Positions 23,101 to 25,955 of a stretch of 64,000 nt of DNA are shown in pieces. The first letter of the stretch is position 1, and the number at the start of each line of letters is the position of its first letter. This stretch comes from Trifolium pratense (Eukaryota; Streptophyta; Magnoliopsida; Fabales; Fabaceae), in contig NC_060065.1 of NCBI RefSeq assembly GCF_020283565.1, forward strand, positions 53,902,703-53,966,702, written 5' to 3'. The notes under the pieces are model-generated. The model made no database searches. It was not told where the DNA came from and was given only the letters and a program-made list of their open reading frames with translations. Made by a program: the position numbers and the translations under genes.

Positions 23101-25955
23101 GGGCTCTGGTCGATCGTATGTTGTTGGATCCGGAGAAATTTCTTTCCCTGTGGTACTTGAATTTTGTCAAGTCTTTTCCTGCTCAATTAATTTAACTTTT
23201 TGTGTGTGCTTATTGTCATGCACTAATTTTGTCCATTATTATATGACACTCATGCTTATTGTCATTCTAGGTCGATCGTATGACACTTATGCTTTTTGTG
23301 TGTGTATTAGCATAAGTGTCATACCCCATTTTTATCATATTTTATTTCCATTATTTCAAAAATTCAAAAATATTATTTTTATATGAATTTTTGTTGCTTC
23401 ACCTTCAAGAAACCACATTTCACTACCAAAATTCCACTTTTACTCCAAATAAGGTCCACTCACCAAAATACCAATTTGGCCAAAGTCAACACTACCAAAA
23501 AATAGGAATAAGTGGCCAAAAAATGTACCAAAAACACAAAAAATGGAATATACCAAAACAATTCCATTACACACCTCTATTCTCACCTAGAATGCTCTAG
23601 AAGGAAGCCACCTCATCAAATTTCGTGATCCCCTCCAATCATTGGATAAGGATCATGATTGGAACAAATAAAACTACCACTATAACTCCAAAAATTCCCA
23701 AAAAATGCCACTCATGAGAAAATTCCATTTTCACCCTTTTTAACCTAATTCCTTCAGCCTAGAATGTTCCTATTGTCTCTATATAAGCAGCAGAGAAGAG
23801 AGGGATAGAGGTTGGATTTTCTGAAGAGCTAGAATCACCAAAAATCTAATCTTTTTCATCATCTTTTCCATTTTTCGAAATTCATCCAAACATCATTCGA
23901 ACTTCAATTTTCTTACACAAAACTCTTCCAATACATCTCAGTTAAGAAACCCACGAGAAAAAAACGAAGAAAAAACGTCAAGAGATGCTCACCCAAAGTT
24001 CAAAAATAGCAAACATTTGTACGAGTTAAACAAAATTAAGGGTTGGAAAAGCTTCAGTAGGTGTTCATGAGTAAAAAACATTTAGAAACCTACTTGTTTT
24101 GAGGCTTGTTTAGGTGGGTTAACACCTACTCTTTTCTTTGCTATTTTTGAACTTTGGGTGAACTTCTCTTGACGTTTTTTTCTCGTGGGTTTCTCAACTG
24201 AGATGTATTGGAAGAGTTTTGTGTAAGAAAGTTGAAGTTCGAATGATGTTTGGATGAATTTCGAAAAATGGAAAAGATGGTGAAAAAGATGATATTTTTG
24301 GTGATTCTAGCTCTTCAGAAAATCCAACCTCTATTCCTCTCTTCTCTGCTGCTTATATAGAGACAATAGGAACATTCTAGGTTGAAGGAATTAGGTTAAA
24401 AAGGGTGAAAAAGGAATTTTCTCATGAGTGGCATTTTTTGGGAATTTTTGGAGTTATAGTGGTAGTTTTATTTGTTCCAATCATGATCCATATCCAATGA
24501 TTGGAGGGGATCACGAAATTTGATGAGGTGGCTTCCTTCTAGAGCATTCTAGGTGAGAATAGAGGTGTGTAATGGAATTGTTTTGGTATATTCCATTTTT
24601 TGTGTTTTTGGTACATTTTTTGGCCACTTATTCCTATTTTTTGGTAGTGTTGACTTTGGCCAAATTGGTATTTTGGTGAGTGGACCTTATTTGGAGTAAA
24701 AGTGGAATTTTGGTAGTGAAATGTGGTTTCTTGAAGGTGAAGCAACAAAAATTCATATAAAAATAATATTTTTGAATTTTTGAAATAATGGAAATAAAAT
24801 ATGATAAAAATGGGGTATGACACTTATGCTGATACTAATTTTTAAGACATGCACCTGAACCTGTCTGTATCTGAACTTTGTTGTTGAATTGTGTAATATT
24901 CAAGACATGCACCCAAGAATAAAATCCTTATTTGCAATGCCGAAACCAAAAACATACACTTATAACAGTAGTGGTGGTTGGTTTATTATCAAAGAATAAA
25001 ATAATACTACATGCTTATGAATCAGAATGTGTATATAATAAATAAACGGATAAAAGGGCAACTTGCTACTATAAAGCTCCTACCATATGGGGACAAGGGG
25101 ATCCATTGCGGATCAATAGAAGGCAATGTTACCTCTCATTTGCAATAAACTGATTCCTTCAAACTCGTAATCTTCTACTTACATTACATGATAATGATTT
25201 TAGCCGTTGCACCAAGGCTCCTCTTCATATGTATACAAGTTGATGATAAAAATGTTCATGTTCCTGTACCCACATGCACATTCATTTGATTAAAATTACT
25301 TGTAGAGAACAAGACTTCCTGATCTTTTACTGTTTCTATTTGCAGTGGAAGCCAGTGGAAGGTGTCATATTTTCTGACTATGGAACTGATCTTGGATCAG
25401 GCCCGACTGTCCCTGGTAGGTCTTTATTTGATTTATTTAATTATTATTTTTGGGCTACAATTCATTTTAATTGTTTGATCCCTTCTTTTGAGGATTAAAT
25501 TATGGAGATCATCTAAATGCACGAGTACTACCATCGATTTTAAATAAGTGAATTTGTCCTGTTTTATGATGTTTACTGTCGAGAAGGACAACTTCAAGCA
25601 CACACTTCAAATCTACAAGCATATACTAGAGTCATTAACTAACCAGATCCAATTATTTTACTTTGGCTCCTTTAATGACTATATCCTCAATATACATATT
25701 AAATTGATTTCTCAACTGGTAGCGCTTCTCTTTATATTTGCCAATATCCTGGTCCTTAATGAGGCATATATTATATACGGGGCTTTTGGTTTTTTATTAG
25801 GTGACCCTGCTGGAGCAAGGAATAAGCCTGGAAGCGGATATGGGTACGGGTTGGGCATCCGTGTGGATTCGCCTTTGGGTCCTTTGCGTCTTGAATATGC
25901 CTTCAATGACAAGAAAGAGGGAAGGTTTCACTTTGGAGTTGGCTATAGAAACTAA
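17179..25955 (+). CDS. OEP80: OEP80, chloroplast outer-envelope Omp85-family beta-barrel protein
   Basis: Sixteen exons join in frame to 671 residues: 17179-17706, 17853-17946, 18047-18129, 18324-18421, 18552-18621, 18995-19085, 19797-19878, 20208-20243, 21773-21926, 22019-22159, 22438-22508, 22606-22684, 22761-22876, 23005-23152, 25346-25415 and 25801-25955. The N-terminal part carries POTRA-type repeats, from EERVLISEVLVRNKDG onward. The C-terminal half is the 16-strand barrel region, with the family's conserved IGGTNSVRGYEEG segment in exon 14 and a final barrel strand ending FHFGVGYRN. OEP80 is related to Toc75 and is needed for plastid biogenesis, probably for inserting beta-barrel proteins into the outer envelope. 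The first 70 or so residues are Ser/Thr-rich and variable. Exon 8 is only 36 nt. Intron 14 (23153-25345) contains the large inverted repeat, and intron 8 three retroelement or MITE insertions. Confidence 0.95.
18832..18923. repeat. Two-copy tandem repeat (46-bp unit) in OEP80 intron 5
   Basis: TTCACCAAAGGGAAAGTATC occurs at 18832 and again at 18878, each followed by a similar AT-rich tail ending TATTCTCTCTT. The copies differ at only a few positions. This is a simple local duplication. Confidence 0.85.
20434..20578. mobile_element. Stowaway-type MITE with an internal 59-bp tandem duplication
   Basis: It begins CTACCTCTGGTCCTTTTTAT and ends ATAAAAAGGAACGGAGGTAG, with TA on both sides (20432-20433 and 20579-20580). 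The right half is duplicated: ACATGATTTATTCAATGAAT starts at 20459 and again at 20518, each copy running to an AACGGAGGTA end. A single element therefore has two successive right ends. It lies in OEP80 intron 8. Confidence 0.85.
20850..21066 (+). mobile_element. Non-LTR retroelement body/tail fragment
   Basis: About 215 bp match the body and tail of the longer element at 37399-37761. Shared strings include GTCTTCTCTGGT, TCTATTAGGTGGTGT and the AGAGACC...TTATTAAT...TTTGCCGTT tail. The tRNA-like head seen in the 37-kb copy is not evident here, so this copy is probably 5'-truncated. It lies in OEP80 intron 8. Confidence 0.7.
21437..21529 (+). mobile_element. SINE with 13-bp target duplication in OEP80 intron 8
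   Basis: A tRNA-derived head has box A-like TCTAGTGGTGAGG and box B GGGTTCGATCCCC, followed by a short body and an A-rich tail. The exact 13-bp repeat AGTTGTTAGATAA lies at 21424-21436 and 21530-21542. A second copy of the same family lies on the minus strand at 26843-26932. Confidence 0.9.
23309..24830. repeat. Very long near-perfect inverted repeat in OEP80 intron 14
   Basis: The left arm 23309-24013 and the right arm 24138-24830 are reverse complements. I see about a dozen substitutions and one 12-nt insertion in the left arm. Both arms encode the same 94-residue chance frame on opposite strands. The loop is about 124 nt and contains a further pairing (24057-24066 with 24121-24130). Near its outer end each arm has TGTCATACCCC, an LTR-like start, and further in a TCTCTATATAAGCAG TATA-like motif (23775-23789 and its mirror near 24350-24364) pointing toward the loop. 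The likeliest origin is two inverted fragments of one retroelement LTR, or an inverted duplication of one fragment. That origin is inference. Confidence 0.93.

What the first reader, a model, noticed from the sequence alone, without database searches (positions are those of the whole stretch)
23309..24830. A 1.5-kb near-perfect hairpin sits inside an OEP80 intron
Arms of about 700 bp match with about a dozen differences and one 12-nt indel, with only about 124 nt between them. Any OEP80 pre-mRNA would contain this as one of the longest double-stranded stems possible. Long intron hairpins can feed Dicer-like enzymes and make small RNAs, could target other copies of the same sequence in trans, and may slow splicing of a plastid-biogenesis gene. 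High arm identity implies recent formation or ongoing gene conversion.
Basis: partly seen in the sequence, partly recalled or inferred. Interest (0 to 1): 0.8.

Follow-up and report, generated by a model that had tools for sequence, protein, structure and literature searches.

The report
Inverted LTR pair in OEP80 intron
A long near-perfect hairpin inside a plant's chloroplast-envelope gene is two truncated retrotransposon ends joined back to back, and comparison with a second copy of the gene indicates that one arm has overwritten the outer part of the other.

Summary
The hairpin is real: arms 23304-24013 and 24137-24835, 12 mismatches, one 11-nt indel, 123-nt spacer, in a 2,193-nt OEP80 intron. 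It is not a foldback DNA transposon. Each arm is the first ~700-800 nt of an LTR whose family has ~2.9-kb LTRs, 5-bp target duplications and gag (156 LTR starts counted in the genome). The spacer is LTR of the right-hand copy. A second OEP80 copy 1.6 Mb away (probably the other haplotype) carries the same hairpin in an older state: both outer ends are LTR 5' ends flanked by CTTAT, so the inverted pair apparently inserted as one unit. In the window copy the outer ~280 nt of the left arm, plus 13 nt of right-hand host flank, copy the right arm (100% identity there, 97% further in), and the edge is an 87-nt patchwork of short copies of nearby DNA. Conversion between arms is thus strongly supported; small RNAs and splicing effects are untested. 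Both arms keep an inward-facing TATA-like motif, so the insert might make hairpin RNA itself. How the pair was joined (before insertion, or by rearrangement afterwards) is open. New variant of a known kind.

The parts
23153..25345 (+). OEP80 intron (2,193 nt, GT...AG) that holds the hairpin
   Evidence: exon junction in frame; Omp85 domain across the junction; homologues continuous across it
23209..23213 (+). CTTAT, left target-site duplication
   Evidence: same 5 nt flank the LTR end at 24823-24827; clearest in the second copy L021
23214..23234 (+). stranded remnant of the original left LTR end (TGTCATGCACTAATTTTGTCC)
   Evidence: matches the LTR start of the family and of the second OEP80 copy
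23235..23321 (+). 87-nt patch absent from the second OEP80 copy; short copies of nearby sequence ending in a copy of the right LTR end
   Evidence: alignment with L021; decomposition; control
23304..23316 (+). inverted copy of the right-hand host flank (target duplication plus 8 nt), now the outermost stem
   Evidence: absent from the left side of L021
23317..24013 (+). left LTR copy, truncated, sense orientation; outer ~280 nt identical to the right arm
23780..23787 (+). TATATAAG, TATA-like motif of the left LTR copy, pointing inward
   Evidence: read from sequence; promoter role inferred
24014..24822 (-). right LTR copy, truncated, antisense; includes the 123-nt spacer
   Evidence: six single LTR copies (L022-L026, L029) match arm plus spacer in one gapped alignment
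24137..24835 (-). right arm as defined by pairing
24352..24359 (-). TATA-like motif of the right LTR copy, pointing inward
   Evidence: read from sequence; promoter role inferred
24823..24827 (+). CTTAT, right target-site duplication

Best explanation
Two truncated pieces of one LTR, each keeping its intact 5' (U3) end, were joined tail to tail (pieces of about 713 and 825 nt in native LTR numbering), and the joined molecule was inserted into the OEP80 intron through its two U3 ends, giving the 5-bp duplication CTTAT. Most likely these were incomplete or broken cDNAs joined before integrase acted; a chromosomal rearrangement of an ordinary LTR insertion is not excluded. Later, in the window copy, the left end broke and was resynthesised from the right arm: about 262 nt or more of arm plus 13 nt of right host flank were copied in inverted orientation, followed by several short template switches that left the 87-nt patch. 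At RNA level the OEP80 pre-mRNA, and possibly transcripts from the inward-facing LTR motifs, would fold into a ~700-bp stem that Dicer-like enzymes could cut, feeding silencing of the LTR family. Shown by sequence: LTR identity, inverted pair, matching 5-nt flanks, conversion tract, patch. Inferred: order of joining and integration, promoter activity, small RNAs.
For: The left arm has 46 matches in the genome (40 of 99 first-look candidates scored), only the two OEP80 loci being convergent pairs among them. L022-L026 and L029 match right arm plus spacer in one alignment. Family termini and TSDs: element at C2:57.79 Mb with CAAGG on both sides and LTRs 99.86% identical; solo LTR in L032 with CTAAT on both sides. 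In L021 both outer ends are LTR starts flanked by CTTAT. Conversion: at 6 of 6 outer informative differences between L021's arms (4 SNPs, an 11-nt indel, the 16-nt shorter LTR end) the window's left arm has the right-arm state, at 0 of 7 inner ones (6 SNPs, 11-nt indel) (Fisher p = 5.8e-4); outgroup LTRs agree with L021's left arm at the outer sites. Outer 279 nt of the window's arms 100% identical, inner 97.3%; in L021 98.2% and 98.5%. Patch: six copied pieces of 10-16 nt, four joints overlapping by 2-5 nt, one piece from the OEP80 exon; 4 of 946 random 75-nt pieces are as well covered by 13-mers of their surroundings.
Against: No joined cDNA was seen, and no other inverted pair of the family: 0 opposite-orientation neighbours under 20 kb among the 100 LTR starts listed of 156. 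That scan is weak: it needs the start motif at both ends, and the OEP80 pair itself would fail it because its right end lost 16 nt. LTR ends share TGTC/GACA, so a chromosomal template switch could restore the 3' edge by chance. A 5-nt match alone has odds of about 1 in 1000; two other copies checked (L022, L028) show no clear TSD. Five of the seven outgroup copies are duplicates of one another, so they count as about three. The first ~18 nt of the patch have no exact source of 10 nt or more. No small-RNA, transcript or population data.
Confidence: 0.5

Rival explanations
1. An ordinary solo LTR or full element inserted first; later a fork or break repair copied its 5' part back in inverted orientation and rejoined at the LTR's 3' edge, deleting the rest (chromosomal template-switch inversion).
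For: Template-switch-like repair happened later at this very place. The inner join lies at the foot of an inverted repeat in the LTR (GAAAAG..AGTAGGTGTT / AACACCTACT..CTTTTC; sequences). LTR ends share TGTC/GACA.
Against: Rejoining would have to fall exactly at the last 4 nt of a ~2.9-kb LTR so as to leave matching 5-nt flanks; 32 nt stay out of the stem at the turn; the minimum-energy folds of two native copies (L022, L029) do not form that inverted repeat as one stem, and in the third (L028) the stretch was not found.
Confidence: 0.3
2. A foldback or MITE-type DNA transposon with long terminal inverted repeats.
For: Long inverted arms, short spacer, matching 5-nt flanks.
Against: Arms are LTR 5' segments; relatives are direct-repeat LTR elements with a primer-site-like sequence and gag; only the two OEP80 loci are inverted pairs among the 46 arm matches.
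Confidence: 0.03
3. Assembly artefact (read palindrome or haplotype error).
For: The window and C7:55.52-55.59 Mb are colinear at 92-99.8%, probably two haplotypes placed in a row.
Against: Both copies contain the hairpin with different private changes and different left junctions.
Confidence: 0.03
4. The hairpin is a selected regulatory device of OEP80 (small-RNA locus or splicing switch).
For: Present in both copies; strong predicted stem.
Against: Divergence between the two copies is 8/692 in the left and 4/796 in the right LTR copy against 36/6294 and 20/2256 in the flanks: no clear sign of constraint; no expression data.
Confidence: 0.07

Closest known systems
Solo LTRs and full LTR retrotransposons of the same family in this genome
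   Same: Same LTR sequence and 5' terminus, 5-bp target duplication, TATA-like motif
   Different: Two truncated LTR 5' pieces in inverted orientation; no LTR 3' part, no primer site, no internal region
Inverted-repeat loci / MITE hairpins near plant genes (review PMC12595863, passages read: about 486 of 634 gene-near Arabidopsis IRs produce 24-nt siRNAs)
   Same: Long hairpin in or near a gene, potential siRNA source
   Different: Derived from LTRs; stem longer than the 253- and 260-bp MITE examples in those passages; single locus with two copies
Arm homogenisation of inverted repeats by template switching (yeast, PMC8604942, abstract read)
   Same: One arm rewritten from the other by copying across the inverted repeat
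   Different: Tract of about 262 nt or more that overshoots into host flank and ends in a patch of several short copies; in a plant intron
Fold-back priming (palindrome review PMC7999016, passages read)
   Same: Can create inverted duplications at short inverted repeats
   Different: Here the outer ends carry matching 5-nt flanks and the turn leaves 32 nt out of the stem

Membership tests
LTR retrotransposon insertion | LTR terminus TG... at the boundary | tested here: met
   both outer ends are TGTCATAC in L021; right end in window
LTR retrotransposon insertion | 5-bp target-site duplication | tested here: met
   CTTAT/CTTAT; family examples CAAGG and CTAAT, two other copies without a clear TSD
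LTR retrotransposon insertion | one 5' and one 3' LTR end (TG...CA) with direct LTRs or a whole solo LTR | tested here: not met
   both ends are 5' ends; LTR sequence beyond about position 825 of ~2,880 absent
MITE / foldback DNA transposon | many copies sharing the inverted structure | tested here: not met
   only the two OEP80 loci among 46 arm matches (40 of 99 candidates scored); motif scan 0 opposite neighbours under 20 kb among 100 listed of 156, but blind to pairs with an altered end
MITE / foldback DNA transposon | TIRs related to a DNA transposase family | tested here: not met
   arms are LTR segments of a family with gag (PF03732 in 2 of 5 scanned frames); no transposase search was run
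Ty3-type retrotransposon | pol with reverse transcriptase and integrase | tested here: inconclusive
   5 open frames of two elements scanned: gag in 2, a sub-threshold Ty3 capsid match in 1, no pol domain
Gene conversion between palindrome arms | concerted change in both arms relative to a second copy and outgroups, with a sharp boundary | tested here: met
   6/6 outer vs 0/7 inner sites
Hairpin small-RNA locus | 21-24-nt RNAs from both strands of the stem | not testable with these tools
   no small-RNA data held

The most novel reading that the evidence does not exclude
Retrotransposon integrase can insert a palindromic molecule with two U3 ends, so LTR families can seed genes with long self-complementary hairpins carrying convergent promoters: a retroelement-made 'foldback' that would arm silencing against its own family and then rewrite its own arms by palindrome-templated repair.
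Probability: 0.35. Interest if true: 0.6.

Novelty: new variant of a known kind. Interest (0 to 1): 0.45.

Why it matters
It shows one concrete route by which an LTR family can place a ~700-bp potential double-stranded RNA source inside a plastid-biogenesis gene, and it captures an arm-to-arm conversion with its extent, direction and repair scar readable from two copies of one gene. It is a natural test case for whether intron hairpins trigger silencing of their parent transposon family.

Tried and rejected
Rejected: foldback/MITE (LTR evidence). Target-duplication searches around 23304/24835 in the window alone gave mainly the copied LTR end as an apparent 15-nt direct repeat, which misleads because the left edge has been rewritten. 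A ~21-nt diverged duplication of the flanks was considered (18 of 20,000 random pairs score as high) but is explained by TGTCATAC(A/C)CTAATTT being part of the native LTR start. Searches for the arm in viral contigs (0; 12 stretches with a 17-mer, for which the first 40 alignment rows, all I printed, show only short weak matches, best E 0.01) and in bacterial and archaeal genome contigs (0) led nowhere. Rfam on 22000-26500: 3 matches, all far below their gathering scores. Literature: searches for palindromic or inverted LTRs, autointegration (73), self-primed reverse transcription (92), and the broader searches listed nothing I recognised as this structure; for these only listings were seen, and most subscription papers are not held. 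The name MITE, the primer-site type and the substitution rate rest on recall.

Full report
OBSERVATION. The inverted repeat is real and close to the stated coordinates: arms 23304-24013 and 24137-24835, 12 mismatches, one 11-nt indel, 123-nt spacer. It is by far the largest of 4 inverted pairs of 60 nt or more found in the window. It lies wholly in an intron running from GT at 23153 to AG at 25345; the neighbouring exon stretches join in frame, the hand-spliced C-terminal 259 residues are an Omp85 domain (PF01103, E 1.2e-48), and the best relative is a Vicia faba protein with 93% identity over 100% of the query, further hits being named outer envelope protein 80. The predicted fold has 729 pairs, a longest unbroken run of 345 bp and -1221 kcal/mol.

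WHERE IT LIES. The genome has 413,558,439 bases in 90 contigs and the window sits on C7; all hits I saw fell on contigs C1 to C7. This fits the red clover assembly ARS_RCv1.1 (413.5 Mbp, seven linkage groups; PMC9650271, abstract and passages read); the identification is inference, and the 90 contigs were not checked against the paper. A table passage in that paper gives 10.4% duplicated BUSCOs in the column I take to be this assembly, so haplotypes left side by side are plausible. Most of the window is colinear with C7:55.52-55.59 Mb: 27 colinear alignments above 300 nt of 92-99.8% identity, besides 2 inverted matches between the hairpin arms. The OEP80 3' part (24836-25960) has 2 matches in the genome, from 2 candidates; the matching search with the 5' part did not complete. 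I call the window copy W and the other P (L021).

WHAT THE ARMS ARE. A genome search with the left arm gave 46 matches (40 of 99 first-look candidates scored); the only convergent pairs among them are W and P. Five copies on C5 (L022-L026) and one on C4 (L029) match the right arm and the spacer in one gapped alignment, and the left arm over the same stretch; L027 and L028 match the arms without the spacer, the other loci in parts. So the spacer is LTR sequence of the right copy. Copies begin TGT(C/G)(A/G)TA(C/T)CCTAATTTTGTC and end GCGACA. At C2:57.79 Mb two LTRs (2,883-nt alignment, 99.86% identical) stand 9.65 kb apart, flanked by CAAGG on both sides, with TGGCGACTCTGCTGGGGA two bases inside, which I recall as a tRNA primer-site type. 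Of five open frames scanned from this and a C6 element, two hold a gag domain (PF03732, E 3e-15 and 7e-15), one of them also a sub-threshold Ty3 capsid match; no pol domain was found. A solo LTR in L032 is flanked by CTAAT on both sides; L022 and L028 show no clear TSD. The LTR start occurs 156 times with up to 2 mismatches, 0 times in the backward control. Of the 100 places listed, 32 neighbour pairs under 20 kb have the same orientation and none opposite; the nearest opposite ones are 30-47 kb apart. This scan cannot see a pair with one altered end, such as the OEP80 pair itself.

HOW IT WAS INSERTED. In P the left boundary reads CTTAT|TGTCATACACTAATTTTGTCCTACCCC and the right GGGGTATGACA|CTTAT. 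So both outer ends are LTR 5' ends and the 5-bp flanks agree. The right end lacks 16 nt between two GGGTA repeats, as a slippage deletion would leave. The inner join links LTR position about 713 to about 825 with at most one shared base (read by eye), at the foot of an inverted repeat present in the LTR, leaving 32 nt out of the stem; minimum-energy folds of native copies L022 and L029 do not show that repeat as one stem. I favour joining of two truncated LTR DNAs followed by integration through two U3 ends; a template-switch inversion of an ordinary insertion is the main rival.

ARM-TO-ARM CONVERSION. I aligned the four arms and seven single LTR copies (L022-L026, L028, L029; the five C5 copies are near-duplicates of one another). 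P's left arm equals the outgroups at four outer SNPs and an 11-nt stretch where W-left, W-right and P-right share another state; the 16-nt shorter LTR end is a sixth such difference. At 23578 W-left and W-right share a derived base, P's arms the ancestral one. Further in, six SNPs and an 11-nt indel separate left from right arms equally in W and P. So W-left has the right-arm state at 6 of 6 outer sites and 0 of 7 inner ones (Fisher p = 5.8e-4). Left out as uninformative: changes private to one arm (5 SNPs in W; 1 SNP and an 8-nt deletion in P-right). Outer 279 nt: W arms 100% identical, P arms 98.2%; inner part: W 97.3%, P 98.5%. The tract runs from the LTR end to about 23578 or beyond and stops before 23757. 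It overshoots: W's left arm continues outward with 13 nt (GTATTAGCATAAG) that are the reverse complement of the right-hand CTTAT and host flank of P; P has nothing of this on its left.

THE REPAIR SCAR. W carries 87 nt (23235-23321) that P lacks. Six pieces of 10-16 nt have exact copies nearby: from 23207, from the LTR arms (CATTCTAGGT), from the OEP80 exon at 23108, from the right LTR end and CTTAT at 24815, from 23196, and the inverted right end; four joints overlap by 2-5 nt. Coverage of 75 nt of the patch (23235-23309) by 13-mers from the surroundings is matched by 4 of 946 random pieces, by 12-mers 6, by 10-mers 13 (54 of 1,000 draws near the hairpin were dropped). The first ~18 nt have no exact source of 10 nt. 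The original LTR end remains stranded at 23214-23234. I read this as break repair by short template switches with the right arm as main template.

AGE. P's arms differ at 11 of 673 sites; with a recalled rate of 1.3e-8 per site and year this is roughly 0.6 million years, a rough guide only. W and P differ at 36 of 6,294 sites upstream and 20 of 2,256 downstream, 8 of 692 in the left and 4 of 796 in the right LTR copy. The hairpin predates their split and the conversion follows it. Four OEP80 exon stretches differ by 1 base in 907; the other exons were not compared.

FUNCTION. Any OEP80 pre-mRNA holds the stem. Both arms keep TATATAAG pointing inward (23780-23787; 24352-24359), so the insert might also make its own hairpin RNA (inference). 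Trans targets exist: 295 of 690 left-arm 21-mers and 248 of 687 24-mers are found exactly in at least one of 13 fetched LTR-family loci (L022-L034; one of them, L031, has none). Gene-near inverted repeats in plants often yield siRNAs (PMC12595863, passages; PMC10760457, abstract and start of introduction), but nothing here tests it, and W-P divergence gives no clear sign of selection on the arms.

VERDICT. A genuine, well-preserved inverted pair of truncated LTRs with matching 5-bp flanks, conversion between arms and a readable repair scar. The kind (inverted repeat from a transposon in a gene) is known; the two-U3-end insertion, if right, is an uncommon variant.

Noticed in passing
window 1-61958 vs G000:C7:55519832-55588315: Most of the window is colinear with a stretch 1.6 Mb away at 92-99.8% identity: probably the other haplotype left in the assembly, or a recent large duplication.
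   Followed up: partly
L032 (G000:C2:9388175-9390665): Solo LTR of the same family with several tandem ~440-nt repeats of its own U3 segment, flanked by CTAAT duplications.
   Followed up: partly
G000:C2:65815292-65833339: Three LTR-like matches in one orientation about 8.78 kb apart, the fetched units 99.2-99.9% alike, as unequal recombination of an LTR element could leave.
   Followed up: no
G000:C5:5372268-5577259: Six copies of an LTR close to the hairpin arms, all on the minus strand, 20-73 kb apart, with similar sequence around them.
   Followed up: no
window 47286-47355 / 47401-47470: 70-nt inverted repeat, 90% complementary, 45-nt spacer: MITE-like.
   Followed up: no
window 16440-16535 / 56940-57035: 96-nt inverted repeat copies 40 kb apart, 88% complementary: dispersed repeat.
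   Followed up: no
window 28165-28316: Two tandem copies of a 76-nt unit, 96% alike.
   Followed up: no
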